A stretch of DNA of 27,559 bases from a virus. The stretch spans positions 16,169-43,727 of IMG/VR virus record IMGVR_UViG_3300001450_000054. One strand, 5' to 3'. The notes below the pieces were generated by a model, which was given only the letters and a program-made list of their open reading frames with translations, did no database searches and was not told the DNA's origin. A program made the position numbers and the translations under genes. Shown here in pieces: positions 5,319 through 20,185 of this stretch. Every line of letters begins with the position of its first letter. The stretch's first letter is position 1.

Positions 5319-5828
5319 TTACCTCTTAAGAATACCAAACCATTTAGAAACAGGTAATCCTTTAACTCCCCATGTTGCGCCTTTAGGATGGTTATCGTAA
5401 TACTTTCTAAAACCAGCAACAGTGGCATTATTACCATAAGCCCCTAACTGTTCATCAGTAGGGTTCATAGTCCATCCCTTATTTTCATTAATTTTAATCC
5501 ATTCTTCGTTAGGCATGGTGGTACTGCTGAATGAGGCAATATAAGGTTCCGAGAGTCTTTTATTTGCTTCCGATGCTATTTTTTTGAAGTTGCCCTTTCC
5601 TTGATATTTAGAAGAAACAAAAGTTCCTCCCCTTAAAGTAAAATTATCTTTTTTAGAATAACCAAGGCCACCAACAATTTTCTCGCCATCAAATAAAACT
5701 ATATAGTTTTCAATAGGATAAAAAGAATCTAGTGGTGAGTTTTCTGAGCGATTAGAGGGAAAAGGTTCGTCTTCTGTTTTTTTCCATAGAGAAACTAATT
5801 CTTCTCTAGGCATGTCTCTAAAAGTCAT
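5319..5828 (-). CDS. GNAT-family acetyltransferase with C-terminal tag
   Basis: A 169-aa protein. The core looks like a GCN5-related N-acetyltransferase, which moves acetyl from acetyl-CoA to an amine: a strand NYIVLFDGEKIVGGLGY (41-57), then GGTFVSSKYQGKGNFKKIA (67-85), where Y-Q-G-K-G fits the acetyl-CoA phosphate-binding loop (Q/R-x-x-G-x-G/A, last position changed), and the late strand/helix IASFSSTTMPNEEWIKINEN. The final ten residues, VSKWFGILKR, match the operon's tag but at the C-terminus rather than the N-terminus. It lies directly upstream of TerL. The substrate is unknown. Start supported by GAGTGAT 4 nt before ATG. Confidence 0.75.
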   Translation of the reverse strand: MTFRDMPREELVSLWKKTEDEPFPSNRSENSPLDSFYPIENYIVLFDGEKIVGGLGYSKKDNFTLRGGTFVSSKYQGKGNFKKIASEANKRLSEPYIASFSSTTMPNEEWIKINENKGWTMNPTDEQLGAYGNNATVAGFRKYYDNHPKGATWGVKGLPVSKWFGILKR

Positions 5829-5832
5829 AATA

Positions 5833-6066
5833 TCACTCGTATTCCTTGATTAAACTTTTAATTTCTGCTGAGACATTCCTTAATCCTTGAGCGACTTTCT
5901 TATATCTAGATGCTCTTTTCTTATCTTTAAATGCATATTGTTCTAAAACAGGAATCACTCTATTTATAGCGGCATGGAGCGATGGGGCTTTACTGAAATC
6001 AATTCTCAATTGTCTTGAGATACTTTCGGGTGACTCTTGTATTGGGGAAGTATATTCAGTTGCCAT
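5833..6066 (-). CDS. Small helical unknown protein
   Basis: A 77-aa protein, MATEYTSPIQESPESIS..., mostly helical with a basic patch (FKDKKRASRYKKVAQGLRN, about 46-64). The ATG at 6066 lies one base after the stop of the upstream gene, with GGGAG overlapping that gene's end as ribosome binding site. No family is recognised and no tag is present, which is unusual for this stretch of the operon. Between a tagged basic protein and the acetyltransferase; function unknown. Confidence 0.75.
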   Translation of the reverse strand: MATEYTSPIQESPESISRQLRIDFSKAPSLHAAINRVIPVLEQYAFKDKKRASRYKKVAQGLRNVSAEIKSLIKEYE

Positions 6067-6067
6067 T

Positions 6068-6433
6068 TTAACTCCCCTTCCGCCACTTTTTGTTTTTCTT
6101 TTCTTTGGTTTTACTTGGACTCCACTTTACTCTATCAGCCCAATACGCCGCCGACATCTTCCCACGCTTAATATTTTCAGCATGACGGGACTTAAAAGCC
6201 TCTCTTTGTCCTTTGGTTTGATTTGTCTTGACTCCTTTTTGTCCGAATTTAATGTATTTTGCTTTCTTACCTTTAGCATCCCAAGCCATTACATGGTGAG
6301 ACTTGCTTTTATCATCTCTTAGTGATTGTGGGCTATTTAATCCGGAAAGACCTTTACTCTTTGCTCTTTCCAATGCCCTCTTTCTAGGACTCTTTGGTTT
6401 TTTCTTTTTGAGAATATCCATCCAATTACTCAT
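6068..6433 (-). CDS. Small very basic tagged protein
   Basis: A 121-aa Lys/Arg-rich protein beginning MSNWMDILKKKK, a tag copy with one extra residue before W. ATG at 6433 is chosen because GGTGATGCTT precedes it; the first eight bases overlap the end of the phosphatase gene. The body has KSHHVMAWDAKGKKAKYIKFGQKG and later KRGKMSAAYWADRVKWSPSK. This last pattern (basic run, then Y-W-x-x-+-x-W) resembles small basic proteins I recall from phages and algal viruses, where the function is also unknown. High positive charge would suit DNA binding inside the capsid; that is inference. Confidence 0.75.
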   Translation of the reverse strand: MSNWMDILKKKKPKSPRKRALERAKSKGLSGLNSPQSLRDDKSKSHHVMAWDAKGKKAKYIKFGQKGVKTNQTKGQREAFKSRHAENIKRGKMSAAYWADRVKWSPSKTKEKKNKKWRKGS

Positions 6434-7001
6434 AAGCATCACCTATTAGATATCCTAATTTCTTTCCTGCTTCTATATCGCTAGGGTAATGACTACCCAT
6501 TTGCACTCTAGATAGTGAGATTCTATCAGCCATTCGTTTTAATTCTTTCTTCTTATTTGGGTATTTTTTACTTAATATTCTTTCTAAACCATAAGCCGCC
6601 ATAGAATGCCCACTAGGAAAAGAAGGTGTATCGTCTGTTGTAGTTTTTGTTGATTTTATTTTATCGCTAATTTCGTATGGTCTAGGTCTTTGGTATTTCA
6701 TCTTTAGTGACATAACATAATAATTAATATCCTTAATAAAATCTTCATACTCATTTCTATCTGCACCAACGATTTCAAACATTTCTTTTTCAGGTTTAAG
6801 GTCTGCATCTTTCATTTGTTTCGAATCAAGTGTTTTCTTTTCCATTATTTTTAGAATAGCAGGTATTTCTGTTTCTTCTTGTGGGTAACTTAATTTAGGA
6901 ATATCTACTTTTATTTTTGGGCTTCTTTCAAGCATATCTTTTTTCTTACTAGAAAGCGTACCTTGCCACTTTATTTTCTTGAGAATATCCATCCAACTCA
7001 T
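6426..7001 (-). CDS. PAP2-superfamily acid phosphatase, tagged
   Basis: A 191-aa protein with all three motifs of the PAP2/class A acid phosphatase/haloperoxidase superfamily: K100-x6-R107-P108, P129-S-G-H132, and S164-R165-x5-H171-x3-D175. H171 would be the nucleophile and H132 the acid. No membrane segments are visible, so it resembles soluble phosphatases rather than lipid phosphatases. The first residues, MSWMDILKKIKW, are the operon's tag followed by a charged linker of about 40 residues. Placed among late genes just before TerL, it may be carried in the virion. The substrate cannot be told from sequence: phosphomonoester, lipid or nucleotide are all possible. Start supported by the tag and AAGGAT upstream. 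Confidence 0.88.
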   Translation of the reverse strand: MSWMDILKKIKWQGTLSSKKKDMLERSPKIKVDIPKLSYPQEETEIPAILKIMEKKTLDSKQMKDADLKPEKEMFEIVGADRNEYEDFIKDINYYVMSLKMKYQRPRPYEISDKIKSTKTTTDDTPSFPSGHSMAAYGLERILSKKYPNKKKELKRMADRISLSRVQMGSHYPSDIEAGKKLGYLIGDAYE

Positions 7002-7005
7002 GTTA

Positions 7006-7323
7006 TCATATCCTTATAAATTGACTTGTTTTAGAACCACTAGATTTGAAATGCTCCCTAACTAATGGTGAATTTGATAGTATTTTACGACCTGTCATCA
7101 TAGCCCATCTTCTGTATACGCTTTCGAAACTTTTAGTGCTTATATTGTTGCGTCTAGTTCCATTTTTAACGAGTTGTTCTATAAACTCATTTTTTATTTT
7201 GGAGTCATTTAGCGAAAATACCTGTCCTTTAGGCATAGCCTCTACAACTTCTAATAGAGACTTTTTTGATGTTTTGAAGTTCTTACTTAGAAATGACACC
7301 TTTAGAATGCTAGTCCATGACAT
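7006..7323 (-). CDS. Tagged basic unknown protein
   Basis: A 105-aa protein starting MSWTSILKVSFL. I chose ATG at 7323, which has AAGTGAT 5 nt upstream and yields the tag; the in-frame ATG at 7359 would overlap the previous gene by 32 nt. After the tag it is a basic helical protein (KNFKTSKKSLLEVVEAM, FIEQLVKNGTRRNNIS, YRRWAMMTGRKIL) that could be a small DNA-binding domain, but no family is recognised. Confidence 0.75.
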   Translation of the reverse strand: MSWTSILKVSFLSKNFKTSKKSLLEVVEAMPKGQVFSLNDSKIKNEFIEQLVKNGTRRNNISTKSFESVYRRWAMMTGRKILSNSPLVREHFKSSGSKTSQFIRI

Positions 7324-7327
7324 AATA

Positions 7328-7690
7328 TCACTTGGGTTTATGTGTGTAAATGTCTCCATCTTGGTGTATGAAGACTTTACCTTCTTTCTCTAATTTGTCT
7401 AAGACTCTTTTGATTTCTGCCTCTTCACCAAATTGTTTTAGATTTTTCATACCTAATGCCCCGCCTTCCTTTTTAATTTCAGCAAGAATTTTAGATTCAA
7501 TATCTTCTTTATAGGAACTCATATAGTCTTCATAAGTAGGTTGTTTTTTTGGACCTGATTTATTTGCTTTTCTTCTAACTCTTCTTTCAGCCTCTTGGCG
7601 GTCTACATTTCTAAAGCGCATTTCTTCTTGAATTAGTTTTTCTTCTTCGGGCGTTAAGGGCGGTGCTTTTAGTATATTTTTCCATTTCAT
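7328..7690 (-). CDS. Tagged protein with C-terminal winged-helix-like region
   Basis: A 120-aa protein, MKWKNILKAPPLTPEEEK.... The tag is followed by a charged helix (residues 15-50) and a basic linker. Residues about 65-120 look like a small winged helix: a helix (DIESKILAEIKKEGG), a second unit (MKNLKQFGEEAEIKRVLDKLEKEGK) and two strands (VFIHQDGDIYTHK). Such domains usually bind DNA or other proteins. AAGGTAGAT precedes the start. Not matched to a named family. Confidence 0.75.
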   Translation of the reverse strand: MKWKNILKAPPLTPEEEKLIQEEMRFRNVDRQEAERRVRRKANKSGPKKQPTYEDYMSSYKEDIESKILAEIKKEGGALGMKNLKQFGEEAEIKRVLDKLEKEGKVFIHQDGDIYTHKPK

Positions 7691-7691
7691 A

Positions 7692-7955
7692 TTATCTACC
7701 TTCTACTTTACGATATTCTTTTTTAGCCGACTTGCTTCTAGGAACATGCTGTTTTCCTTTTTTCTTTCCTGCTCTTTTCTTAGCACTTTCATATTTTCTT
7801 TGATTGTCTGTAAGTGAATCTTTCACCGCTTTAGGGGCATATCTTCCCCCTTGAGTAGTAAGCGGTTGCCAATCTTCCCTATTCCATTCAACCATATCTT
7901 TTTGCTTATCGGTTAAACCTTTAAGAATATTCCACCAATTACTTTTTATTGACAA
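7692..7955 (-). CDS. Tagged basic unknown protein (probable TTG start)
   Basis: I place the start at TTG 7955, giving 87 residues, because AGGTGG lies 5 nt upstream and the product then begins LSIKSNWWNILKG, with the tag close to the N-terminus. An in-frame ATG at 7985 would add ten residues and a 47-nt overlap with the previous gene. The body includes REDWQPLTTQGGRYAPKAVKDSL and ends in a very basic tail (KKRAGKKKGKQ...KSAKKEYRK). Function unknown; the basic tail suggests nucleic-acid contact. Confidence 0.65.
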   Translation of the reverse strand: MSIKSNWWNILKGLTDKQKDMVEWNREDWQPLTTQGGRYAPKAVKDSLTDNQRKYESAKKRAGKKKGKQHVPRSKSAKKEYRKVEGR

Positions 7956-8454
7956 AACCGCCACCTCTCTCTTGATATCTTTCATTCAGTTCTTGAGATT
8001 TACGACCAGACCATTCACCCTTAGCAGTTCCATGAGTATTTTCATTAAGTAAAGTTGCGTGTATTTCTTCCCTTAGTTTCGGTTTAGTATATACACCGGC
8101 AGGGGCTTTGTATTTAGTCTTCTTTTTCTTTTTTAATATTTCTTGCCAAGACTTACCTAATGTTCTATCAAAAGTTCCATCTTGGAGTTGCCTATATCCT
8201 GCTCTAGTGGCGGCTCCTTTCATACTCATGCTAATTTTCCTAGACATTTTTTTTCCCATGTTTCTAAAAACTCTAGTAACTGCATTTTTAGAGCCTTGAG
8301 TTTCTAATTTCTTAAGCAAGTTTTCATAGAATTCTTCATACTCGTTATAATCTAATCTAAACTTATCACCTAAGTTCAGCATAGCAAATGCTTTATCTGC
8401 CGCTTCACTGGGTATCTTAAATTTTGCTTTGTTTAATATTTCTTCCAAACTCAT
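7939..8454 (-). CDS. Basic protein with N-terminal and internal tag copies
   Basis: A 171-aa protein. It starts MSLEEILNKAKF, a degenerate tag with L in place of W, and carries a full internal copy, KSWQEILKKKKK, at about residues 103-114. The N-terminal half is helical (YNEYEEFYENLLKKLETQGSK), the middle very basic (KKMSRKISMSMKGAATRAGYR) and the C-terminal 55 residues are basic too. The ATG at 8454 overlaps the stop of the 848-aa gene by one base; AGGTGAT sits unusually close, so GTG at 8457 or the later TTG cannot be excluded. The two tags may record a fusion of two tagged genes. Confidence 0.72.
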   Translation of the reverse strand: MSLEEILNKAKFKIPSEAADKAFAMLNLGDKFRLDYNEYEEFYENLLKKLETQGSKNAVTRVFRNMGKKMSRKISMSMKGAATRAGYRQLQDGTFDRTLGKSWQEILKKKKKTKYKAPAGVYTKPKLREEIHATLLNENTHGTAKGEWSGRKSQELNERYQERGGGFVNKK

Positions 8455-11000
8455 CACCTAAATTCTGCCTTAATAAGATAAACTTGGTCTGCGCTTATAC
8501 CATATTCTTTAGAAATGTTAGCATGTGAATCCTCACCTAGCACTATTTTTTCTACTTCGTGAACACTTAAATCAACTTGTTGCTCTACTTGCATTTTACT
8601 AATTAAACCAGTTATCCCTTTAGAATTAAAAACAGCCCTGCCGTGTACAACCTCTTTGCCTAATTGTTGTCTAATGATGTCATGAGCCTTCAACATCTTA
8701 TGTAATAGTACAGGTAAGTCTACTTGGACACTCTCAAATAAATCTTTTAATCTATTGTAGTGTTTTCTCTTAGTGTTATCCTTTGTTAATGCACCTTGAT
8801 TCTTATCTAACCAATAAGGTAAGGCAAAAACTGGGAAGGGTTTTCTTTGACCATGTTGTTTATAAAATTCCATAGACCTTTCTTTGAGGGTTTTTCTATT
8901 AAATTTCTTTTTGCCAAACTTTTCTAATTCCTCTTCTTCCATTGATTCTTTAGCAAAGTGATAGATGATGGCCGCACAGTAATTATTATTTTGTTCTTCT
9001 TTACCGAATATGTCAGTTAAAGCACCTGCTGCCTGTTCACCATCTGTTATAAGTATTCTATCTATTTTAACACCACTGTCAAAAATATTATCTAAGAAGT
9101 CTGCTATGTTAGCCAAATTGTCTGCTGTGGCCTCTTCTAAAGTACCTTCAAAAGACATCTCTAACGACTCGGAAAGAACTGTTTCTACACCCAAATCCAA
9201 ACTTAATAGTTGGAAGACTTTAGTACCTATGCTACTGCCGAAGGTTGGCATAGATATAGGAAGATAACCGGCATAAAGAGGATTAAAGAAATATTCAACT
9301 GCTGATTCCATCATTTTCTTTAGAGAATCCGCTACTCCTTGCATTATCTCTTCTCTAATTTGGCCTCCTCTTTGTAGCGGAACTGGAAATTCTGCAACTT
9401 GGAATGAACCTCTTTCTCTTCTATCTATTACACTACCTCGCATACCAGTAGAAGACCTAACACCTACTTCTTCTCTAAAGATATCATCCGATAAAATCTT
9501 ATACAAATCTTCAAAGAAATTTTTAATTTTATCTAAGTTATCCAAACTTATTTTTGTATCATTCGCAGCCTCGAAACTATCCCCAGTATAACTTTCGGCA
9601 AAATAATTATTAGACATCACTGAAATAGGTAAAGCGTAAGACTCTATACTTATGTTGGCTTCATTATTATCTAAATCCTCTTGTTCGATAACTGTGGTAT
9701 CTTCCACCTCACTAACCCATCTTTTCAAATCGTATTGAGTATTTATGGACAGTGCCACAACTCCTCCATCCATACTCTCTCTAGAGGAAAGGCTTTTCTC
9801 TATTTCTTCTAATAAATCTAATAATTCTAATTCAGCCTGTTCGGATATGGCGACTAATTTATTATTAGTATTATCTTCATATATTAGAAGAGGGTCTGCT
9901 ATGCCTCTTATGGATTGAACCTCTCCTTTATATTCAAACCCTTGATTAGTTTCTGTCTTATATCTTCCTAGACTTTCTCCGGATAGAGTTTGTCCTCCCC
10001 CATCTCCACCGCTAGAAATACTACTTGTTAGTTCACTTGTTAATTCTTGATTAACATCGGAAAAACTGGCAGGGTCGTCTTCATATCTTTCTTCCATAGC
10101 ATCTTTATCAAACAAATCTTCTGCAACCATTATGTTAAATAAAATATTCCAAAACTTTTGTCTACGGTTGGTAAATCTCTTGTCAACTTTTGGAAAATAA
10201 GCCACATACTGTAACTCATCTAAGTTTATTTTTAAAATATCTTCTAGCGTATCCATTGCTTCATCGGGTAGATTTAATTTTTCAAAGTTGTCAAACAGTT
10301 CTTCTGTGTTTGTTTTAAACTCGTCAAACTTACCAACTACGCTATTCCAAAAGTCATAAACTGCTATTCTAGTTGTTTTTTTAGATACATCAGCAACACC
10401 TAAAAACTTTCTAACTGGGAAATTTTTAACTTCTATTATTTCTCCCGAATCTTGTTGCATATTGTCTTCTAATAAACTAATAACAGTATCATAATTTTCT
10501 GCTAATATTTTTAATTTGTCATTTTGCGATGATGCTCTAATAGCAGTTTTTAAATTTTCATCTTCCAATAAAGATATATCGGGATTTCTAATATCGACAT
10601 TAGTTCTATTAGCAAGCCTTATTTTTACTAAATCATTATAATCAACCAAAGCACCGCCTATGTAGATATTCATATCTAATAGTGGTTTAATTACAGATTT
10701 TATTTGGCCTAGTTTTCCTTCTATAATAGTTCTAGTTCCTCCACCCTTTAAGCCTCTTATCTGCTTTCCTAAATCTTTAACCAGTTCATCTTTTTCTTTG
10801 GCTATGTATTTTTTTCTGTCTTCTAGAATTTGTTTAGTTTCTTCTGCCTCTTGGTTTGGTCTATCGGGATATTTTTCCTTGGCTTCTTGTTCTATTTTTT
10901 CTATATGTGGGGCTAACAGCCTTCCACGAATAGCCCTTGCTTGAATTCTATTGGCATCACTTAGGAATTTAAGTTCATCTTCTTCAAATTTTACTTTCAT
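8454..11000 (-). CDS. Large unknown protein (848 aa), probable structural
   Basis: An 848-aa protein beginning MKVKFEEDELKFLSDANR. It has a charged coiled-coil-like N-terminus (30-90), long acidic helices, a Gly/Ser-rich flexible stretch near residue 330-350 (SSISSGGDGGGQTLSGESLG), and a C-terminal part resembling a small helix-turn-helix (VHEVEKIVLGEDSHANISKEYGISADQVYLIK). There is no N-terminal tag; FWNILFN near residue 285 resembles it weakly and is probably chance. ATG at 11000 overlaps the stop of the 769-aa gene (ATGA), with GGAGAG upstream, so the two large proteins are probably made together. Size and position suit a structural or injected internal protein, but no known fold is seen. 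Confidence 0.8.
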   Translation of the reverse strand: MKVKFEEDELKFLSDANRIQARAIRGRLLAPHIEKIEQEAKEKYPDRPNQEAEETKQILEDRKKYIAKEKDELVKDLGKQIRGLKGGGTRTIIEGKLGQIKSVIKPLLDMNIYIGGALVDYNDLVKIRLANRTNVDIRNPDISLLEDENLKTAIRASSQNDKLKILAENYDTVISLLEDNMQQDSGEIIEVKNFPVRKFLGVADVSKKTTRIAVYDFWNSVVGKFDEFKTNTEELFDNFEKLNLPDEAMDTLEDILKINLDELQYVAYFPKVDKRFTNRRQKFWNILFNIMVAEDLFDKDAMEERYEDDPASFSDVNQELTSELTSSISSGGDGGGQTLSGESLGRYKTETNQGFEYKGEVQSIRGIADPLLIYEDNTNNKLVAISEQAELELLDLLEEIEKSLSSRESMDGGVVALSINTQYDLKRWVSEVEDTTVIEQEDLDNNEANISIESYALPISVMSNNYFAESYTGDSFEAANDTKISLDNLDKIKNFFEDLYKILSDDIFREEVGVRSSTGMRGSVIDRRERGSFQVAEFPVPLQRGGQIREEIMQGVADSLKKMMESAVEYFFNPLYAGYLPISMPTFGSSIGTKVFQLLSLDLGVETVLSESLEMSFEGTLEEATADNLANIADFLDNIFDSGVKIDRILITDGEQAAGALTDIFGKEEQNNNYCAAIIYHFAKESMEEEELEKFGKKKFNRKTLKERSMEFYKQHGQRKPFPVFALPYWLDKNQGALTKDNTKRKHYNRLKDLFESVQVDLPVLLHKMLKAHDIIRQQLGKEVVHGRAVFNSKGITGLISKMQVEQQVDLSVHEVEKIVLGEDSHANISKEYGISADQVYLIKAEFR

Positions 11001-13312: not shown

Positions 13313-13555
13313 TCACCTGTATAAAGTGTAAGACCCTTTCTTTTTTGCCATGAGCCTTAAAGTATCATAAATCTCGCCTTTAACAAAATCTTCTTCTTTC
13401 CATAGGTTAAACATAATCTCGATAATATTATGGTCTTTATGCTCTTTATTATTTTCTAACCATTCACGAATAGTATTAGCATGTTCTTGTACAACAGTGA
13501 TATAATTACCTTCCTTATCTTTAGGGCGGTGTTTAATTATATCTTCCCAATTCAT
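13313..13555 (-). CDS. Tagged unknown protein
   Basis: An 80-aa protein, MNWEDIIKHRPKDKEGN..., with the tag followed by a helical, mixed-charge domain (ANTIREWLENNKEHKDHNIIEIMFNLWKEE) and a basic C-terminus. Its start overlaps the stop of the upstream gene (ATGA), and the 35 bp around that junction are nearly the same as the junction 300 bp further upstream. The AGGTGA at its own end serves as ribosome binding site for the 769-aa gene. No family recognised. Confidence 0.78.
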   Translation of the reverse strand: MNWEDIIKHRPKDKEGNYITVVQEHANTIREWLENNKEHKDHNIIEIMFNLWKEEDFVKGEIYDTLRLMAKKKGSYTLYR

Positions 13556-13854
13556 TGTAACTTCTCCTGCATTTGGTATAAATCGTATAGGTGGCGTTCA
13601 AAGGCATTTTTCTTACGCAGTAAATTGCTTCTTTTTGGTTCTTCACTACTACCAATACCCGCTATCATAACCTCTAAATCTTTAATTAATTTTTGATAGG
13701 ACTTTATGTTTTTTCTAAGATATGTTTTTAATCCAATGTCCTCCGCCAATTCTACCATTGAATCTACATTTTCGTTTCCTGTTATGTCTTCTAAACGCTC
13801 AAGAGATTCCTTTAATTGTGATAAATCTTCTTTTAATATATCTCGCCAACTCAT
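13552..13854 (-). CDS. Tagged coiled-coil protein
   Basis: A 100-aa protein, MSWRDILKEDLSQLKESLERLED..., predicted almost entirely helical with heptad-like leucines. The last six residues, MQEKLQ, are identical to the end of the upstream TerS-like protein, because the DNA at both gene ends (coding plus embedded AGGAGAA ribosome binding site) is duplicated. ATGA overlap with the previous gene. Function unknown; a tag plus short coiled coil suggests an adaptor or scaffold-type part. Confidence 0.78.
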   Translation of the reverse strand: MSWRDILKEDLSQLKESLERLEDITGNENVDSMVELAEDIGLKTYLRKNIKSYQKLIKDLEVMIAGIGSSEEPKRSNLLRKKNAFERHLYDLYQMQEKLQ

Positions 13855-14516
13855 TGTAATTTCTCCTGCATTTTTTGTTTAATCTCTAACCATATCTGCG
13901 GATTGTTTTGTGCTAACACTTCTTGGACTATCTGCATTTGGTGGACTATAATGGTATCTTGTCTCTTATGGATAAGTTTTCCTTTGAATTCCATAAGATA
14001 CTTCAAAGATTCTCTAATCTCTCTTGCTAACTTAGTTAAGGCATCAATCATCTTAGGGTCTAAATCATTTCCTAAGTCGTTGAATACTTGTTCTAATCTT
14101 ACATCTAATTTAGAAACATTGTTAGAAAGTAATTCAACTTCATTGACTTCTTTTCTTGCTATTATCATAGCCGCACTCTCTTGAACAATAGGCATAAGAT
14201 GATGTTTCATGTGTCTTTGGATTTGCTCCTTAGTAGTGTCCAATGCTGTAGCAACTGCTTCACTTTCAATACTGCCTTCGCTAATCGCCTGTTCGTAATG
14301 CTTTCTCATTGGGTCTACACACAATTTACACTTTGGATTGGAACTCATCTTGTATTCACCCATATGATTTCTTTGGTGTTGGGCAGCAGTACCGCTTCTC
14401 CAACCGTACTTTTCATCTAAAGCATCACAAGTTATTTCTCCGGAGTCGAGCATTTGCTCCAATTCTTCTCTAACTTGGTGTTGGCACATACCACACCTTT
14501 TTCGGCTAACGGCCAC
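13851..14516 (-). CDS. Tandem zinc/HTH protein, candidate small terminase
   Basis: A 221-aa protein with GTG start at 14516 (GGAGATAAA just upstream). Two copies of a C-x2-C ... helix-turn-helix ... (R)H-x3-H unit are visible: C8-G-M-C11...HQRNHM (about 8-52), and C62-K-L-C65...IQRHMKHHL (about 62-107). Units of this type (C-x2-C, a small HTH, then R-H-x2-3-H) are familiar from phage DNA-binding proteins. The C-terminal half is helical (NNVSKLDVRLEQVFNDL...LAREIRESLKYLMEFKGKL) and suits oligomerisation. DNA-binding HTH followed by a helical oligomerisation region is the layout of small terminases, but it lies 8.5 kb from TerL, so the role is inferred. It carries no tag. Confidence 0.65.
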   Translation of the reverse strand: MAVSRKRCGMCQHQVREELEQMLDSGEITCDALDEKYGWRSGTAAQHQRNHMGEYKMSSNPKCKLCVDPMRKHYEQAISEGSIESEAVATALDTTKEQIQRHMKHHLMPIVQESAAMIIARKEVNEVELLSNNVSKLDVRLEQVFNDLGNDLDPKMIDALTKLAREIRESLKYLMEFKGKLIHKRQDTIIVHQMQIVQEVLAQNNPQIWLEIKQKMQEKLQ

Positions 14517-14517: not shown

Positions 14518-15813
14518 TTATCTCCTCCAAAGATTTTGTTGCCATAACTTAGAAATTACCTTTGTATCGGGAGAATATTTAGAATCCTTGCTATCTACGC
14601 TATCGCCAAACTTTTCCCTTGCCGTTTTTCTATAATCAAAGCCGCCTCTTCTAGCATTCTGCCACGCTCTATATCCGTTTGGTGCTTTCTTATCCTTTCC
14701 TTTGAATTTTCTTTTTAAGGCTAAATCTACTAAACCAATAACCGGACTAGCAGTAGAAGTTAATCTCATAGCATCAAAATAAATTATTAGCCCATCGTCG
14801 GAATTTGAACTCTCTATACCTGCTAATTCTCTAACTAACTCTTGGTCGGAATTGCCTAAAGATAAATCTGTAGAATTAAGTCCTTGTCTAACTTTGTTTA
14901 CTAATAGTCTACCACCGGCGTTCCATAGCGCAGAATTTGTAATTACTTTATCGAAGTAACTCCTAACAGATTGTATTTTATCTAATTCCGAAGCCGAGGT
15001 TCTAGGAGGTAAATTGTCTAAACGGATTTTACTAGGCTCTCCTTTAATCTTATCTAACTCTTCTTCAGCCTCTCTCATGATAGCAAGAAGACCTTTAGGT
15101 TTAGAAAATTGAGTGCTTGTTTCGGAAAACAGTGCCAAGTGTGGTGGATTTTTACCCGCTAACCAACTAGGCTCTACTCCTTGTCCTTCTCCCCCTGCAA
15201 AATTATCAGTCTTATAATGCCCTTGAACTTCTTTTTCTTCTATTATTTCACCAGTATCGGGGTCTTTTATTTTATCAGTAAATAATATAAAAGCAGGGTC
15301 AAAGGCTGCGGTTCTACCTCCTGCGTCTTTCCCTGTGTCTTTGTATTTTTCCAAATCCTCGGCAATAAGAGTAATTAGTTTGGCTTCTCCTTTAGTAAAA
15401 AATTTATTACCATCGCCCACAATTTCTTCAATCTTGTCCAAAAACTCCATAGTGCCTTTACCTGCTCTACCTTTATTTCTGCTACCATCACGAATCATGT
15501 CTTCTTGTCTCAAATGCGCTTTAAGAAATTTGTAAAGGTCGCCCACTCCTTTGGTTTCTAAATCACCATCACTGATATTAGAGCAATTGTTTTTCCATTC
15601 TTCAAACTTAGCAGGGAAAGTATAGGTAGGGGCATCGACAGGATTTCCATTGATTTCAATTTCATCCTTCTTTTTATCTTCATTCTTTAGGAGTTTATCT
15701 TTCTTTTTCTTCTTTTTAGAATAAGAGGTGCCAAACATAGCAGGAGCAGATGCGGTGGTTACGGCAACCGTCATCTTTTCTTCTTCATCCTTTAGAATAT
15801 TTTTCCATGACAT
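14518..15813 (-). CDS. Tagged unknown protein (431 aa)
   Basis: A 431-aa protein starting MSWKNILKDEEEKMTVAV. A very Lys-rich, probably disordered segment follows (about 32-52). The remaining 370 residues look like a folded domain with motifs such as APTYTFPAKFEEW, RTAAFDPAFILFTDKI, SDDGLIIYFDAMR and a basic C-terminus (GYRAWQNARRGGFDYRK). No known family is recognised. Start at 15813 has AGGTAATTAAT upstream. The next gene (TerS-like) starts 2 nt after its stop. Function unknown; a tagged candidate internal protein. Confidence 0.78.
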   Translation of the reverse strand: MSWKNILKDEEEKMTVAVTTASAPAMFGTSYSKKKKKKDKLLKNEDKKKDEIEINGNPVDAPTYTFPAKFEEWKNNCSNISDGDLETKGVGDLYKFLKAHLRQEDMIRDGSRNKGRAGKGTMEFLDKIEEIVGDGNKFFTKGEAKLITLIAEDLEKYKDTGKDAGGRTAAFDPAFILFTDKIKDPDTGEIIEEKEVQGHYKTDNFAGGEGQGVEPSWLAGKNPPHLALFSETSTQFSKPKGLLAIMREAEEELDKIKGEPSKIRLDNLPPRTSASELDKIQSVRSYFDKVITNSALWNAGGRLLVNKVRQGLNSTDLSLGNSDQELVRELAGIESSNSDDGLIIYFDAMRLTSTASPVIGLVDLALKRKFKGKDKKAPNGYRAWQNARRGGFDYRKTAREKFGDSVDSKDSKYSPDTKVISKLWQQNLWRR

Positions 15814-15818: not shown

Positions 15819-16004
15819 TTACCTCTTAGTAAAAACGCTTCTAGCCCTAGACTTTTTGTTATTTTTCTTTTCCTGCAAAACTTCAAAGTCTTTTTCATCT
15901 ATCTTATTTTCGGGAGGTGCTTGTTCGGCTATCTTCTTTTGATTGCCAAACAATTTCTTTTCGAATTGTTCTTTCTCTGCTTTTAGCACCTTTTTCCATG
16001 ACAT
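15819..16004 (-). CDS. Small tagged basic protein
   Basis: A 61-aa protein, MSWKKVLKAEKEQFEKKL..., with ATG at 16004 preceded by GGAGTGA at good spacing; an in-frame GTG three codons upstream overlaps that ribosome binding site and is unlikely. The product is a charged helix after the tag and ends in a basic tail (NNKKSRARSVFTKR). A 52-bp gap separates it from the upstream gene, the widest in this part of the operon, with no clear promoter. Confidence 0.75.
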   Translation of the reverse strand: MSWKKVLKAEKEQFEKKLFGNQKKIAEQAPPENKIDEKDFEVLQEKKNNKKSRARSVFTKR

Positions 16005-16056: not shown

Positions 16057-16422
16057 TCACAATGTTTCTAATAAATGTAAAAAGTATCTAGAATAGGCTC
16101 TAGCCTCTTTAGGAGTAATTGTGAAATACTCTTCCTTGGCATGAGTGGTTCCTTCTATTGAAGACATTTTTGTATCTGCCGATTGTCTCTTTTCTAAATA
16201 ATCATCAATGGCTTGTTTAATAGTTTCATCTTGCATTACTTCTACCATTCTACCATATTTTTTAACTTCCGGCGTTGTAAGACTGTTTAATATTTCTCTA
16301 GCGAGTGAAACAGGCATACCTAGATTTACTACCTTTCTACTTAGAATTCTTTTCTCAACAGGTCGCCTCTTAAGGACAGTTTGCCAATCTTCATTAGAGG
16401 CTGTGGTTTTTTTCAAATCCAT
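16057..16422 (-). CDS. Unknown protein with offset tag
   Basis: A 121-aa protein, MDLKKTTASNEDWQTVLKRRP.... The tag (DWQTVLKRR) begins at residue 12 rather than 2. The start at 16422 is supported because the 20 bp before it (TTAGCGAGGGCTTGATATG) are almost identical to those before the next tagged gene upstream, at 16747. The remainder is helical (RKVVNLGMPVSLAREILNSL, PEVKKYGRMVEVMQDETIKQA) and ends ARAYSRYFLHLLETL. No family recognised. Confidence 0.75.
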   Translation of the reverse strand: MDLKKTTASNEDWQTVLKRRPVEKRILSRKVVNLGMPVSLAREILNSLTTPEVKKYGRMVEVMQDETIKQAIDDYLEKRQSADTKMSSIEGTTHAKEEYFTITPKEARAYSRYFLHLLETL

Positions 16423-16423
16423 A

Positions 16424-16747
16424 TCAAGCCCTCGCTAAATTTTTTTCAAGAGTATCTTCATCAAAGAAACTATCGGGCAACATAGGTAAATTGCTAACAT
16501 CCATTTCATCTAAGAGCAAGTCTTCTAATTTATTTATTCTATCCTTATGTTTTTTAGGATTGTCTTTATATGATTCCAACTCATCATAAATTCGATTAAA
16601 CTCATCTAACTCATACTGTTCATGTTCTTGCCTATTTTCGTAGTCTTCTTGATACAAAGAACCAAAATAATTATTCCCCCAACCTTGTAAATCATAAAGG
16701 TAGTCCTCATAGACTTTATCCTTTTTAACAATAGAAAACCAACTCAT
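16424..16747 (-). CDS. Tagged acidic, Tyr-rich protein
   Basis: A 107-aa protein beginning MSWFSIVKKDKVYEDYLYDL. After the tag it is acidic and Tyr/Asp/Glu-rich, contrasting with its basic neighbours, and mostly helical (EHEQYELDEFNRIYDELESY). The start overlaps the GAGGGTTTGA end of the preceding gene. Its own last residues, NLARA, and the following DNA repeat the end (SLARV) of the upstream gene. Function unknown. Confidence 0.75.
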   Translation of the reverse strand: MSWFSIVKKDKVYEDYLYDLQGWGNNYFGSLYQEDYENRQEHEQYELDEFNRIYDELESYKDNPKKHKDRINKLEDLLLDEMDVSNLPMLPDSFFDEDTLEKNLARA

Positions 16748-16748
16748 A

Positions 16749-16976
16749 TCAAACCCTCGCTAAACTGCCCAATATTCTTTTGATAGTATCATCAGTAGCC
16801 TTATGCAATCTATGGTATTCTCCGGCTAAGTCTTCAAACTCCTCGCCATTAATCATTTCTTCATCATGAAACTTTCTAACCATGTCGTGCAATTCTTTCA
16901 AAGAAACTATCTGCATTCCAATTTTAGCAATGGCATTTTGAGTCGTTTGCATTTTTAGTATATCTTGCCAACTCAT
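16749..16976 (-). CDS. Tagged small helical protein
   Basis: A 75-aa protein, MSWQDILKMQTTQNAIAKIG..., helical throughout (SLKELHDMVRKFHDEEMINGEEFEDLAGEYHRLHKATDDTIKRIL). AGGTGATAAGAA before ATG 16976 is a strong ribosome binding site. Its start codon overlaps the stop of a 35-codon frame upstream (ATGA). Ends SLARV, duplicated in the next gene. No family recognised. Confidence 0.75.
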   Translation of the reverse strand: MSWQDILKMQTTQNAIAKIGMQIVSLKELHDMVRKFHDEEMINGEEFEDLAGEYHRLHKATDDTIKRILGSLARV

Positions 16977-17080: not shown

Positions 17081-17082
17081 AA

Positions 17083-17391
17083 TTATCGCCCATACTCTTT
17101 ATTTAATTTCATAACAAAATCCGCTACTAATCCTTCCATCTCTTCTAAATCTTGTAGGCTATTAGAATCATCTACCATTTCTCGTATAGTATCTAGGTCT
17201 TGTTTTATTTGCCCTCTCACAAAAGCCATATCTGTGATAGAATCCGCCTTATTCATTTTTGTATCTTCGAATTGCGGAATAAGAGGATATTCTTTTGACG
17301 GTAATCCTTGCTTAATTCTTTCTCTTGCTCGCTTAACATCTATCGGTAGTTCTTCTTCTTCTTCTTCTTTGATTATTTTTTTCCAACTCAT
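17083..17391 (-). CDS. Tagged acidic helical protein
   Basis: A 102-aa protein, MSWKKIIKEEEEEELPIDVKRAR.... An unusual run of six Glu follows the tag. The rest is helical (MAFVRGQIKQDLDTIREMVDD, LEEMEGLVADFVMKLNKEYG). A 1-bp gap separates its start from the stop of the gene upstream. No family recognised. Confidence 0.76.
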   Translation of the reverse strand: MSWKKIIKEEEEEELPIDVKRARERIKQGLPSKEYPLIPQFEDTKMNKADSITDMAFVRGQIKQDLDTIREMVDDSNSLQDLEEMEGLVADFVMKLNKEYGR

Positions 17392-17392
17392 A

Positions 17393-17899
17393 CTATCTAC
17401 TCCTAATATAGTCGCTCATCCAAGCGGCAGGATTACTATCAAACAAATCTTGAGGAGGTAATTCCTTCGATTGTTTATCTTCTGTAGGTTCCTCTCTACA
17501 TTTATCCCATTCATTCAGCACATCTTCTACTTCGTTGTAATCGAATAGTTCTGCCAAAAATCCTCTTTTAGCATCCTTACTCATTTCTACAAATCTTTCA
17601 ATAGAATCGTATAATGAAAAACAATCTTCTTCGGATAGAATGGAAACTGTGCTTTCTAAAGCCTCTCTATTACCTTTATTGTAATCTTTAATGAAGTCAT
17701 CCAACGACATATTACTTCTTCTCATGTACGGTTCAGCAAACCTTCTAAAATTATCATCTACCATTTTATCAAGGTGTTCCGGAGTTCCTATTTTTTCAAT
17801 GGCCTTTTCAAAAATATTTACTATTTTAACTCTAGCCTCTTCACAACACATATCGTCTCTATTAATTTCTAGGTTTTTGAGTATATCTTTCCATGTCAT
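17393..17899 (-). CDS. Tagged unknown protein (168 aa)
   Basis: ATG at 17899 follows AGGTGAATA and gives MTWKDILKNLEINRDDMCCE; an in-frame upstream start at 17908 would overlap the ribosome binding site. The body is helical with hydrophobic segments (ARVKIVNIFEKAIEKIG, SLYDSIERFVEMSKD, FLAELFDYNEVEDVLNEW), an adjacent Cys pair near residue 18, and a polar tail (EEPTEDKQSKELPPQD). Function unknown. Confidence 0.76.
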   Translation of the reverse strand: MTWKDILKNLEINRDDMCCEEARVKIVNIFEKAIEKIGTPEHLDKMVDDNFRRFAEPYMRRSNMSLDDFIKDYNKGNREALESTVSILSEEDCFSLYDSIERFVEMSKDAKRGFLAELFDYNEVEDVLNEWDKCREEPTEDKQSKELPPQDLFDSNPAAWMSDYIRSR

Positions 17900-17904
17900 A
17901 TTAT

Positions 17905-18300
17905 TCACCTAATAGACTCCATTAAATCATCTGCTAAATCGGTAAATTCTTTGGCTCGTCTTTCAAGATACTTCCTGCTCTCCGCATTTCTTCTCGAAAA
18001 TTCGCCATATCCCTCCATGTCTCCGCCCGATGATACATTATCTGTTGAATCACCAACACCATATTTGAGATAATTAGCATAAACCCTCAAAGCACCAACT
18101 ATTCCTCCTATTACCTCTTGGGCTTCTTCTTTACCTACTAATTGTTTTAGATATTTAGCATTCTTATTAAAAGTGTCAGCAATCTGCATGAGGCCACCTT
18201 TCATATTCTCAAGTTGCTTTTGATTCAATCCCTCTAACATTTCAAGATTTCTTCTTGGCCCTTGTTTTGGTTCTTTTTTTACTATATCTTCCCATGTCAT
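17905..18300 (-). CDS. Tagged unknown protein (131 aa)
   Basis: Starts MTWEDIVKKEPKQGPRRN at 18300 with AGGTGAATA upstream. The middle is helical (LNQKQLENMKGGLMQIADTFN, YLKQLVGKEEAQEVIGGIVGALRVYANYL) and resembles a short helical bundle; a Gly/Ser-rich loop follows (DSTDNVSSGGDMEGYG), then a charged helix. No family recognised. Confidence 0.76.
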   Translation of the reverse strand: MTWEDIVKKEPKQGPRRNLEMLEGLNQKQLENMKGGLMQIADTFNKNAKYLKQLVGKEEAQEVIGGIVGALRVYANYLKYGVGDSTDNVSSGGDMEGYGEFSRRNAESRKYLERRAKEFTDLADDLMESIR

Positions 18301-18306
18301 ATTATT

Positions 18307-18356
18307 CACCTTTTATTTTAAACTACTTTTTCAAAAATTTTTCTAGGAATTTTTTT
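18307..18356. repeat. Duplicated gene junction, copy 1 (pair at 19766-19815)
   Basis: About 50 bp here match 19766-19815 with only a few changes. In reading direction (minus strand) the unit holds the last codons of a gene (K-N-S-stop), the AT-rich spacer AAAAATTTTTGAAAAA, then GTTTAAAATAAAAGGTGA, leading into the next ATG and tag. The two flanking coding regions are otherwise unrelated, so this is copying of a junction and not of a whole gene. Confidence 0.85.
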
Positions 18357-18609
18357 CCTTCTTAGGAAACTCTTCTCCTGCTATACTTGCCATTTCTCTT
18401 TGTGCAAAATATTTAGGGTCAGTGGCTTGCTCCCTTCTAACTCTTTCATTTATGGCTTCAAGTTGAGCATCAGCACTTTTAGCATCTTCTTCCTTGAACT
18501 TTCGGTATTCTTCTTCATTATATCCCGCCATTCTACGGTCTAATTCATCTCGTTCCTCATCAGTCATATCTTCATATTTCTTTGATTTCAATATATTTTT
18601 CCATGTCAT
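18343..18609 (-). CDS. Tagged charged helical protein
   Basis: An 88-aa protein, MTWKNILKSKKYEDMTDEER..., made almost wholly of charged residues in helices (EERDELDRRMAGYNEEEYRK, AQLEAINERVRREQ). It ends KKEKNS; the stop codon lies within the duplicated 50-bp junction shared with 19766-19815. AGGTGATATT precedes the ATG. Function unknown. Confidence 0.76.
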   Translation of the reverse strand: MTWKNILKSKKYEDMTDEERDELDRRMAGYNEEEYRKFKEEDAKSADAQLEAINERVRREQATDPKYFAQREMASIAGEEFPKKEKNS

Positions 18610-18621
18610 AATATCACCTCC

Positions 18622-18954
18622 TTAATTTTTTTCCTGTCTTTCAAGAAAACTAATTGCTAACGCCAATTGTTCTCTTAGGACTTTTTCGTTTACTATTTTT
18701 TTAATTGCTGGCATAGTATTCTCTATAAAATCCTGTAATTCTTCTAACATTTCTCTAACAGTATGAGTTCCTATTTTGTTAAAGTGTTCCATTTTTTCTC
18801 TAACAACGGGGTCAAAAGTATCATCTCTATCTCTTTGAACACTATTGTCCGAACCTCGCTCTCCCGTTTGAAATTCTTCATCATAGTCTTCTTCTAGCAT
18901 TTCTTTCATATCTTTATCCGATATTTCTTTTCTAATCATACTTTTCCATGTCAT
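18622..18954 (-). CDS. Tagged acidic helical protein
   Basis: A 110-aa protein from ATG 18954, MTWKSMIRKEISDKDMKEML..., where the tag has M-I-R in place of I-L-K. It continues acidic (EEDYDEEFQTGERGSDNS) and then helical (VREMLEELQDFIENTMPAIKK). AGGTGAATA upstream supports this start rather than the frame-open extension to 18993, which would overlap the previous gene. No family recognised. Confidence 0.76.
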   Translation of the reverse strand: MTWKSMIRKEISDKDMKEMLEEDYDEEFQTGERGSDNSVQRDRDDTFDPVVREKMEHFNKIGTHTVREMLEELQDFIENTMPAIKKIVNEKVLREQLALAISFLERQEKN

Positions 18955-18967
18955 ATTATTCACCTTT

Positions 18968-19399
18968 TTATATTCCAAATTTTCTTTGAGCATTAGGGTC
19001 GCCTTTTGAGGCTTGAATCATATCTCCCATTCTTTCAACTTTAAAGCCTAATTTTTCTAATTCGGGAATGCCATGAGTTGCGATAAAATTAGCATCAAAC
19101 TTACCGTCATAATGGTTCAAATCATATACCAACCCTCTCTTTTTTCCATATCCGTCGCTTCCATCTGTGCCTTTTGGTATATCTTGAGTATTTACTTTAA
19201 TAGCAAATTTTCCTGCTTTTTGAAACTCAGGGTCATTTCTAAATTGAGTAACTATATGATGCATTCTTTGTTTAGCAAGTTCAATAATATTCTGTTGATT
19301 ACCAGTAAGTTTAGGTTCAGCAGGAGTTTTATCCCTTTTAAATCTACCAAATGGTGCTTTCTCTATTTTGTCTTTTTTCAATATATTTTCCCATGTCAT
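18968..19399 (-). CDS. Tagged unknown protein (143 aa)
   Basis: Starts MTWENILKKDKIEKAPFGRF at 19399 with AGGTGATTA upstream. A basic linker (FKRDKTPAEPKL) leads to a compact alpha/beta region: LTGNQQNIIELAKQRMHHIV, FAIKVNTQDI, RGLVYDLNHYDGKFDANFI, ELEKLGFKVERMGDMIQASK. The alternation of helix and strand with a final 'KLGFKVERMGDMIQA' strand suggests a small folded domain, not just a tag carrier, but no family is recognised. Confidence 0.76.
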   Translation of the reverse strand: MTWENILKKDKIEKAPFGRFKRDKTPAEPKLTGNQQNIIELAKQRMHHIVTQFRNDPEFQKAGKFAIKVNTQDIPKGTDGSDGYGKKRGLVYDLNHYDGKFDANFIATHGIPELEKLGFKVERMGDMIQASKGDPNAQRKFGI

Positions 19400-19400
19400 A

Positions 19401-19760
19401 TTAATCACCTTTTTTATTCGGGTTCTTTGTATAATCTCTATCCTTTTCAGTTTCACCGTAAATTTTCTCAGAAACTTCTATTATTTTTTCTCTTTCATCG
19501 GGTATAGTAAATGTAGAAAAGCCATCATAACCGCTTGGGTCTTCTTCGTTTAAATAAACAATTACCTTTACTCCGTCAATAATATATCCTCTAGCATGGT
19601 CTTCTGTGCCTCCGTATAATTCCGATAAATCAAATGTATCATATTTACCTGCTTTAATTTCTTTGACTGTTCTAGCACTTAGAGGCATTTCCGCATAAAA
19701 AATATTTTCAGGGGTCAAACTTGAATCTTTATTTTTTCTTATCGTATTTTTCCATGTCAT
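19401..19760 (-). CDS. Tagged unknown protein (119 aa)
   Basis: ATG 19760 with AGGTGATATT gives MTWKNTIRKNKDSSLTPEN; the longer frame to 19793 would start inside the duplicated junction. The body is alpha/beta: AEMPLSARTVKEIKAG, DLSELYGG, ARGYIIDGVKVIVYLNEEDP, STFTIPDEREKIIEVSEKIYG. It ends in a polar tail. No family recognised. Confidence 0.76.
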   Translation of the reverse strand: MTWKNTIRKNKDSSLTPENIFYAEMPLSARTVKEIKAGKYDTFDLSELYGGTEDHARGYIIDGVKVIVYLNEEDPSGYDGFSTFTIPDEREKIIEVSEKIYGETEKDRDYTKNPNKKGD

Positions 19761-19765
19761 AATAT

Positions 19766-19815
19766 CACCTTTTATTTTAAACGCTTTTTTCAAAAATTTT
19801 TCTAGGAATTTTTTA
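19766..19815. repeat. Duplicated gene junction, copy 2 (pair at 18307-18356)
   Basis: Near-identical to 18307-18356: gene end K-N-S-stop, AT-rich spacer, and GTTTAAAATAAAAGGTGA ribosome binding segment before a tagged start. Differences are confined to about three positions in the middle and to the bases just before ATG. Confidence 0.85.
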
Positions 19816-20185
19816 GTGGGACTGACATATTATCTTGTTGTTCCGAACCCCTAGATATTACCTTGAAATCACCTTGTAATTCCAACATAGTTCTTCTTGG
19901 TAGCATCACTGTCCCATCTTTGTCATGTTCTGCAACTAAACCATAGTCTCCGAAAACGCTTTGATGTGTTGCTCCATCAATTTTATACTGGTTTCCTTTT
20001 TCTAGTCTTGCTTGTCTACTCATAGATTCGGTGTGAGGAAGAACAGGCAACTTCATACTCTTTGAACCTGTATATTCAACAACTGAACCAAATGGTACAG
20101 TCTCACCATCAAAGAAACTAAAGTACATTTTGTAGTCGTCGTGTCCTTTTATTGGGCTTTTTCTAATTATATTTTTCCAATCCAT
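19802..20185 (-). CDS. First gene of the long operon; tagged beta-rich protein
   Basis: A 127-aa protein if started at ATG 20185 (MDWKNIIRKSPIKGHDD), the choice that puts the tag at the N-terminus; the ribosome binding site (GTTGAT) is weak. An in-frame ATG at 20245 would add 20 residues before the tag. The body looks beta-rich and barrel-like: YFSFFDGETVPFGSVVEYTG, KGNQYKIDGATHQSVFGDYG, GTVMLPRRTMLELQGDFKVI. It ends LKNS inside a duplicated junction. First gene of a minus-strand run of 33. Confidence 0.75.
   Translation of the reverse strand: MDWKNIIRKSPIKGHDDYKMYFSFFDGETVPFGSVVEYTGSKSMKLPVLPHTESMSRQARLEKGNQYKIDGATHQSVFGDYGLVAEHDKDGTVMLPRRTMLELQGDFKVISRGSEQQDNMSVPLKNS

What the first reader, a model, noticed from the sequence alone, without database searches (positions are those of the whole stretch)
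5319..20185. A shared W-x-x-I-L-K peptide tag on about 23 unrelated viral proteins
Between 5.3 and 20.2 kb, about 20 proteins of very different length and composition begin M-(S/T/N/D/K)-W-x-x-(I/V/T/M)-(L/I/V)-(K/R), and three more carry it slightly inside or elsewhere. Examples: MTWKNILK, MSWQDILK, MNWEDIIK, MDWKNIIR, MSWMDILKK (phosphatase), MTWQTILK (769-aa protein). The pattern places W, I and L on one face of a short helix with basic residues after it. Tailed viruses such as T4 mark internal head proteins with a short N-terminal capsid-targeting sequence that is later cut by the prohead protease; a common tag on so many late proteins suggests an analogous packaging or docking system here. 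I know of no description of it in this form, but could not search.
Basis: partly seen in the sequence, partly recalled or inferred. Interest (0 to 1): 0.9.

Follow-up and report, generated by a model that had tools for sequence, protein, structure and literature searches.

The report
Shared docking tag on archaeal-virus cargo proteins
Abundant tailed viruses of marine archaea put the same six-residue peptide tag (W-x-x-I-L-K) on hundreds of otherwise unrelated late proteins, most likely as an address label that loads them into the virus particle for injection into the host, so the sequence alone would list a virus's delivered proteins.

Summary
In the window 23 of 26 late ORFs between 5.3 and 20.2 kb carry W-x-x-[IVTM]-[LIV]-[KR]: 21 at or near the N-terminus, one between domains, one at the C-terminus. 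The window belongs to a magrovirus-like archaeal tailed virus. In 80 relatives 693 of 1618 late-strand ORFs carry the motif against 44 expected; 562 against 4.8 lie in the first 25 residues, spread over about 190 unrelated families (about 290 in the wider set). Only the hexamer is shared: 171 non-homologous proteins have no common residue after K6. Codons vary freely, so selection is on the peptide. The tag is confined to the late, virion-side gene block, absent from replication genes and host genomes, and essentially exclusive to this virus lineage (terminase identity down to 58%). It is appended outside known domains and can sit at either end. The best reading is a docking tag that loads accessory cargo into the head, working like phage T4's capsid-targeting sequence, with the same aromatic-x-x-hydrophobic-hydrophobic spacing. 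It is not homologous to it, not strictly N-terminal, and shows no cleavage site. Virion localisation and the receptor are inferred, not shown.

The parts
5319..5828 (-). 169-aa GNAT-like protein with the tag WFGILK at its C-terminus (tag 5325-5342)
   Evidence: Acetyltransf_1 E=0.0018, below Pfam cut-off; family of 64, 62 of them tagged, C-terminal or interdomain
5833..6066 (-). 77-aa ORF without tag; some relatives of this family are tagged
   Evidence: cluster 24 (4 of 11 tagged)
6068..6442 (-). 121-124-aa very basic protein, tag WMDILK (6407-6424) at start MSNWMDILKKKK
   Evidence: cluster 0
6426..7001 (-). 191-aa PAP2-type acid phosphatase, tag WMDILK (6978-6995)
   Evidence: PAP2 E=1.6e-13 over residues 97-187; PDB acid phosphatases 7f18 E=2e-11, PhoN 2akc E=2e-8
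7006..7323 (-). tagged protein, WTSILK (7300-7317); ATG at 7323
7328..7690 (-). 120-aa tagged protein, WKNILK (7667-7684)
7692..7985 (-). 97-aa tagged protein, WWNILK (7920-7937)
   Evidence: family of 32, all tagged (cluster 13)
7939..8457 (-). 172-aa fusion: N-terminal domain, then tag WQEILK (8131-8148), then DUF5872-like C-terminal domain
   Evidence: phrog_17747 E=2.5e-10 on residues 109-168
8454..11000 (-). 848-aa conserved untagged protein (cluster of 77 in the 80 relatives), mostly helical; fold not recognised
   Evidence: pLDDT 76; no PDB match; no phage match
10997..13306 (-). 769-aa conserved protein, tag WQTILK (13283-13300); Trp3 nearly invariant in the aligned family; residues 1-9 low-confidence tail in the model
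   Evidence: pLDDT 80; no PDB match
13313..13555 (-). 80-aa tagged protein, WEDIIK (13532-13549)
13552..13854 (-). 100-aa tagged protein, WRDILK (13831-13848)
13851..14516 (-). 221-aa untagged Cys-containing protein; possible small terminase/DNA-binding protein
   Evidence: weak DNA-binding-domain PHROG 867 E=0.013
14518..15813 (-). 431-aa tagged protein, WKNILK at N-terminus (15790-15807) and a degenerate copy (WQQNLWRR) at its C-terminus; relatives carry the tag at the C-terminus instead
15819..16004 (-). 61-aa tagged protein, WKKVLK (15981-15998); ATG at 16004
16057..16422 (-). 121-aa protein, tag WQTVLK at residue 13 (16369-16386)
16424..16747 (-). 107-aa tagged protein, WFSIVK (16724-16741)
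16749..16976 (-). 75-aa tagged protein, WQDILK (16953-16970)
17083..17391 (-). 102-aa tagged protein, WKKIIK (17368-17385)
17393..17899 (-). 168-aa tagged protein, WKDILK (17876-17893)
17905..18300 (-). 131-aa tagged protein, WEDIVK (18277-18294)
18343..18609 (-). 88-aa tagged protein, WKNILK (18586-18603)
18622..18954 (-). 110-aa tagged protein, WKSMIR (18931-18948)
18968..19399 (-). 143-aa tagged protein, WENILK (19376-19393)
19401..19760 (-). 119-aa tagged protein, WKNTIR (19737-19754)
19802..20185 (-). 127-aa tagged protein, WKNIIR (20162-20179); first gene of the tagged block
3884..5374 (-). large terminase subunit (untagged), directly downstream of the main tagged block
   Evidence: phrog_38 E=4e-53
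694..2331 (-). portal protein (untagged)
   Evidence: PF04860 E=6e-11, phrog_18178 E=1e-62

Best explanation
W-x-x-[IV]-[LI]-[KR] is a short linear docking motif used by magrovirus-like tailed viruses of marine archaea. SHOWN: it is peptide-level, modular, placed at the N-terminus, the C-terminus or between domains, and restricted to late genes on the virion-morphogenesis strand. It sits on roughly 10-25 accessory proteins per genome that otherwise share nothing. INFERRED: the motif forms a short amphipathic helix (W1, I4, L5 on one face, K6 beside it) that binds one common partner in the assembling head, most simply the scaffold/protease core or the inner capsid wall. Every tagged protein is thereby co-packaged, and is then ejected with the DNA to act early in infection, for example against host defence. 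It works like phage T4's capsid-targeting sequence but arose independently.
For: (1) Huge enrichment over shuffles; consensus sharply limited to the hexamer, with information 6.9/1.4/1.3/3.2/2.7/3.1 bits at positions 1-6 and at most 0.34 after. (2) All leucine and isoleucine codons are used at the tag, so it is not a DNA element. (3) About 190 families in the first 80 relatives and 287 in the wider set; aligning 122 of them yields only MxWxxILK. (4) Whole ~95-kb relatives have 6-14 matches to an N-terminal tag DNA pattern each, all on one strand, with 0 in the reversed control. The late block holds the N-terminal tags and the replication block essentially none. (5) The tag is appended outside the domain: DUF5872 starts MAKSKSTVNKAGNYTKP in pelagiphage HTVC033P but MSWQDILKKKKKKSTVNQAGNYTKP here. 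A CCA-adding enzyme (PDB 4wby E=7e-21, homology from residue 11) carries it at both ends. (6) It can move: family 16 is tagged C-terminally in relatives and N-terminally in the window with a decayed C-terminal copy. C-terminal enrichment is 50 observed versus 8.6 expected in the last 10 residues. (7) T4's tag has the same aromatic-x-x-hydrophobic-hydrophobic spacing, with residues 4 and 7 decisive (PMC9026906). T-even internal proteins likewise share only that leader and block defence nucleases (PMC12373910). (8) An S78 head-maturation protease and SU10-type MCP are present. (9) Tagged genes form a variable accessory pool: 111 of 188 tagged clusters are singletons, while 10 of the 12 clusters with 40 or more members are untagged.
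Against: I found no virion proteomics for any magrovirus, so location in the particle is not shown. No receptor was identified: the two large conserved late proteins had no recognisable fold. No cleavage consensus follows the tag, unlike T4. The related Druskaviridae virus HVTV-1 lacks the tag in its head genes. Tagged proteins as a set are not basic (median net charge 0). Most have no known function; the counter-defence reading rests on few annotated members, one of them (SAM lyase) below cut-off.
Confidence: 0.7

Rival explanations
1. The motif recruits a host protein (for example a clamp, protease, chaperone or RNA-polymerase subunit); tagged proteins are late intracellular effectors that dock to one host hub and never enter the virion.
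For: A W-x-x-I-L-K helix is a typical docking-motif design. Several tagged members are enzymes or inhibitors plausible inside the cell: GNAT-like, PAP2, CCA-adding enzyme, pentapeptide repeat.
Against: Tags are confined to the late virion strand and absent from early and replication genes, which would profit most from host docking. Conserved late proteins next to portal and terminase also carry it (769-aa family; the large protein after the portal in L152).
Confidence: 0.13
2. The tag docks accessory proteins on the outside of the virion (capsid decoration or tail/neck), not inside.
For: Position in the late block fits any virion location; the motif cannot tell inside from outside.
Against: Cofactor- or substrate-dependent intracellular enzymes (CCA-adding enzyme, GNAT-like, PAP2) make little sense on the outer surface. 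Hundreds of unrelated cargoes are unlike known decoration proteins (general knowledge).
Confidence: 0.1
3. The shared start is a DNA or RNA element (start-codon context, or a recombination handle for swapping cassettes) and the peptide is a by-product.
For: Most copies lie at start codons, and the block is a variable cassette hotspot.
Against: Synonymous codons vary freely at all degenerate tag positions. The tag is also enriched at C-termini and between domains. Trp is not replaced by other residues beyond a few cases.
Confidence: 0.03
4. All tagged proteins are diverged paralogues of one ancestral protein that keep only its N-terminus.
For: Tandem paralogue arrays exist (six tagged copies in relative G003).
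Against: Members include unrelated known folds (PAP2, CCA-adding enzyme, pentapeptide, DUF5872), some with untagged homologues elsewhere; the tag sits at different ends.
Confidence: 0.02

Closest known systems
Phage T4 capsid-targeting sequence (CTS) of internal proteins IPI, IPII, IPIII
   Same: A short N-terminal peptide is the only thing shared by otherwise unrelated, largely non-essential proteins; aromatic residue and hydrophobic residue three positions later (T4 residues 4 and 7); phage-encoded head protease; accessory hotspot.
   Different: W-x-x-I-L-K instead of Y/F-x-E-F-I/T; no conserved cleavage site; also C-terminal and interdomain; roughly 10-25 tagged proteins per genome and 190-290 families rather than 3 in T4 and about 10 reported; archaeal viruses of a different lineage.
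Polyvalent proteins and other head-packaged, injected effectors (P1 DarA/DarB/Ddr, N4 vRNAP; Iyer et al. 2017, PMC5512222)
   Same: Accessory, often multidomain, conflict-related proteins encoded near portal and terminase genes and thought to be injected.
   Different: No common short peptide tag appeared in the passages read; here loading appears to depend on a six-residue motif.
Encapsulin cargo-loading peptides (from general knowledge)
   Same: Short terminal peptide on diverse enzymes directs them into an HK97-fold shell.
   Different: Different motif, cellular compartments rather than virions, usually one or two cargos; not tested here.
Magroviruses (order Magrovirales: Aoguangviridae, Apasviridae)
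   Same: Gene content and layout of the virus: TFB, ATP-dependent DNA ligase, S78 protease, portal, terminase; replication and morphogenesis modules in opposite directions.
   Different: None of the magrovirus papers found in the open library mentions a shared N-terminal motif in what was read or searched.

Membership tests
T4 CTS / internal-protein packaging system | Short peptide shared by otherwise unrelated accessory virus proteins | tested here: met
T4 CTS / internal-protein packaging system | Aromatic residue followed at +3 by a hydrophobic residue as the targeting determinant | tested here: met
   W1, I4, L5 pattern; T4 Y/F4, F7, I8/T8. A resemblance of pattern only; that these residues do the targeting here is untested.
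T4 CTS / internal-protein packaging system | Sequence identity with T4's MKTYQEFIAE | tested here: not met
   Trp is near-exclusive here: 460 W versus 8 F and 2 Y; Lys instead of an acidic residue at the end
T4 CTS / internal-protein packaging system | Strictly N-terminal propeptide | tested here: not met
   C-terminal and interdomain tags
T4 CTS / internal-protein packaging system | Removal by the prohead protease at a conserved site | tested here: not met
   protease gene present, but no shared residue or motif after the tag; actual processing not testable
T4 CTS / internal-protein packaging system | Late expression with head genes | tested here: inconclusive
   same strand and block as portal, terminase, protease and MCP; no transcript data
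T4 CTS / internal-protein packaging system | Tagged proteins located inside the head and ejected | not testable with these tools
   needs virion proteomics
T4 CTS / internal-protein packaging system | Binding to a gp22-like scaffold core | tested here: inconclusive
   848-aa and 769-aa conserved proteins have no recognised fold; complex prediction not available
Magrovirus (Magrovirales) | 90-110 kb genome, replication and morphogenesis modules in opposite directions, archaeal replication/transcription genes, S78 protease, HK97-type MCP | tested here: met
   relatives of 91-97 kb; TFIIB zinc ribbon, DNA ligase, S78 protease, SU10-type MCP; opposite strands. The window's own record is a 49-kb piece.
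Magrovirus (Magrovirales) | Host is Poseidoniales (MGII) | tested here: inconclusive
   TFIIB ribbon and haloarchaeal-virus-like MCP indicate an archaeal host; no close terminase in 390 genomes of the phylum of a genome titled Thermoplasmatales archaeon

The most novel reading that the evidence does not exclude
Magrovirales possess a universal, position-independent cargo-loading code (W-x-x-I-L-K) that packages a large, fast-changing arsenal of roughly 10-25 injected proteins per virus. Several hundred protein families, including tRNA repair and putative anti-restriction enzymes, are thereby marked by sequence alone as virion-delivered effectors.
Probability: 0.6. Interest if true: 0.9.

Novelty: new variant of a known kind. 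Interest (0 to 1): 0.8.

Why it matters
[quoted passage not shown] A tag readable from sequence would name, in any metagenome, which of their proteins are delivered into archaeal cells. That is a direct catalogue of candidate counter-defence and takeover proteins against a host group whose immunity is hardly studied. It would also be a second, independent case of a T4-like capsid-targeting code, in another domain of hosts, with far more cargo and free choice of terminus, and it offers a short portable peptide for loading proteins into a viral shell.

Tried and rejected
Chance and composition: rejected by shuffles and strand controls. DNA-level or regulatory element: rejected by codon variation and C-terminal/internal copies. 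Conserved cleavage site: no residue or gapped triplet after the tag beats the shuffle null. Common motif in host genomes: the N-terminal DNA pattern occurs about 66 times in 145 genomes of the phylum containing a Thermoplasmatales archaeon, about as rarely as the reversed control, against 78 times in eight viral genomes. Basic DNA-binding cargo as the common feature: net charge of tagged proteins is not raised. Tag in the sister family Druskaviridae or in a methanogen virus: not found in the head genes checked; a virus-like contig from a Thermoplasmatales MAG with 33% terminase identity has none. Receptor by fold: AlphaFold models of the 848-aa and 769-aa families gave no PDB match with E below 0.3. 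Reference magrovirus records (PP497040, ON649702, OR863078) are not held. A first L102 query had wrong coordinates.
Full report
WHAT THE WINDOW IS. The window is bases 16169-43727 of a 49.3-kb IMG/VR virus record. On the minus strand it holds a large terminase (3884-5374), a portal (694-2331) and, beyond the window, a Peptidase-S78 head protease, an SU10-type HK97-fold major capsid protein and an ATP-dependent DNA ligase. On the opposite strand are genes including a TFIIB zinc-ribbon protein. The MCP's nearest named relatives are haloarchaeal Druskaviridae (24.8% identity) and methanogen viruses. Relatives found by terminase include many contigs of 90-97 kb, with replication and morphogenesis modules on opposite strands. 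All this matches the published description of magroviruses, order Magrovirales (PMC10160649, PMC10768690, PMC12999244). The host is therefore very probably a marine archaeon, but no host genome with a close copy was found.

CHECKING THE OBSERVATION. 23 of 26 minus-strand ORFs between 5319 and 20245 carry W-x-x-[IVTM]-[LIV]-[KR]: 18 directly as M-x-W after a start codon with a ribosome-binding site, three slightly further in, one between two domains and one at the C-terminus. In 80 relatives (terminase identity 80-94%) 693 of 1618 ORFs on the late strand carry it, versus 44 in shuffled proteins; 562 versus 4.8 have it in the first 25 residues. In eight relatives with records of 91-97 kb the N-terminal DNA pattern occurs 6-14 times each, always on one strand, and never in the reversed control. 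In 145 genomes of the phylum that contains a Thermoplasmatales archaeon it occurs about as rarely as its reversed control.

WHAT IS CONSERVED. The consensus is M-[SNT]-W-[KEQF]-[DEN]-[IV]-[LI]-K. In 171 mutually non-homologous tagged proteins the information content is 6.9, 1.4, 1.3, 3.2, 2.7 and 3.1 bits for positions 1-6 and falls to 0.34 or less afterwards; no downstream triplet motif exceeds the shuffle null. Aligning 122 representatives gives only MxWxxILK. Trp is hardly exchanged: 460 W against 8 F and 2 Y at that position. All synonymous codons are used, so selection is on the peptide. In the model of the 769-aa family the first nine residues are a low-confidence tail with a short helix at 3-7, as expected for a docking motif that folds on binding.

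WHERE IT SITS. The tag is modular. In the last ten residues of proteins a relaxed form is found 50 times against 8.6 expected. In family 16 the relatives end with WQDILRW, WMDILRN or WQEIMRA. The window's member has the tag at its N-terminus and a decayed copy (WQQNLWRR) at its C-terminus, as if it had moved. In the GNAT-like family next to the terminase it is C-terminal in one-domain members and interdomain in longer ones. It is appended outside known domains. DUF5872 is untagged in pelagiphages and other marine phages and tagged here. A CCA-adding enzyme (PDB 4wby, E=7e-21, homology starting at residue 11) bears a tag at both ends. The PAP2 phosphatase domain begins about 80-90 residues after it.

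WHICH GENES. The tag marks the accessory pool of the late strand. Of 188 tagged clusters 111 are singletons; 10 of the 12 clusters with 40 or more members are untagged (terminase, portal, 848-aa protein and others). In the whole genomes G003 and G007 the N-terminal tags lie in the morphogenesis half and the replication half has essentially none. The wider set gives 287 tagged families. Few have known functions: PAP2 phosphatase, GNAT-like, pentapeptide repeat, CotH-kinase-like, DUF5872, CCA-adding enzyme, and weak hits to SAM lyase, HsdM N-domain and HalA. The SAM-lyase match stays below the family cut-off.

HOW WIDESPREAD. The tag persists to 58% terminase identity. A scan of 2.9 million viral contigs for the DNA of MSWKDILK (the pattern also admits Phe at the Leu position) found 77 stretches. 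About 70 have further tags or magrovirus homologues around them; five have neither, two more are short tag-bearing pieces without recognisable homologues, and most contigs with unclear context proved to carry the same terminase and MCP. The tag is thus a property of this virus lineage, not of its host or of marine viruses generally. A virus-like contig with 33% terminase identity and the head genes of HVTV-1 and of a methanogen virus lack it.

MECHANISM. Steps shown: peptide-level selection, modularity, late-block restriction, lineage exclusivity. Inferred: the motif is an amphipathic helical plug that binds one partner in the assembling head, so that any protein bearing it is loaded and later ejected with the DNA. 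The strongest outside support is T4. There the internal proteins share only a leader (MKTYQEFIAE in IPII and IPIII, MKTFKEF in IPI; read), residues 4 and 7 decide targeting (PMC9026906), and the proteins are injected inhibitors of diverse restriction nucleases in an accessory hotspot (PMC12373910). W-x-x-I-L has the same spacing. The differences are real: no cleavage site, either terminus allowed, far more cargo, different residues. It therefore works like a capsid-targeting sequence but should not be filed as a T4 CTS.

LIMITS. ORFs were called by a simple longest-first rule. Many loci overlap or come from near-identical viruses, so raw counts are not independent; the non-homologous representatives address this. 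I found no virion data. The literature search covered open-access papers only; none of the papers listed or read describes this motif.

VERDICT. Observation confirmed, interpretation supported in its core and corrected in detail. Confidence about 0.95 that it is a genuine shared docking motif and about 0.7 that it loads proteins into the virion.

Noticed in passing
L094:14197-17376, L094:18557-22564, L094:22542-23018 (HVTV-1 gp113, gp115, gp116): Three head-region proteins of the haloarchaeal virus HVTV-1 share a different element around Y[VI]....EAPE, possibly another family-specific shared module on late proteins.
   Followed up: no
window 2510-3874: 454-aa ORF between terminase and portal, present in essentially all 80 relatives, with a weak HNH-endonuclease PHROG match at its C-terminal half (E=2e-5); an endonuclease-like gene kept as a core late gene is unusual.
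   Followed up: no
G003:C1:56915-60859 (L091/L092; also L057 from 36): Six tandem tagged paralogues of about 200-240 aa sharing a start like KNVITQ.RVKEIEDIDID and then diverging strongly.
   Followed up: partly
L152:12025-14346: In the most divergent relatives the large variable protein encoded after the portal itself starts with the tag (MSWENVIK), and the 769-aa-protein equivalents have a variant W-x-x-L-L-I-R-E tag.
   Followed up: partly
L101 and genome G010 (MAG titled Maricaulis sp. isolate IN14): This bacterial genome bin contains at least three magrovirus-type terminase contigs (94, 71 and 55% identity), which looks like bin contamination.
   Followed up: no
L269:207-1055 and L271:2395-3234: 279-282-aa untagged ORF (IYEVGPRDGLQN start, HMG-CoA-lyase-like) inside or beside the tagged block in several relatives.
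   Followed up: no
window 2379-2513: 44-aa ORF with two CxxC pairs between portal and the 454-aa gene; a similar short Cys-rich gene recurs in relatives (cluster 17).
   Followed up: no
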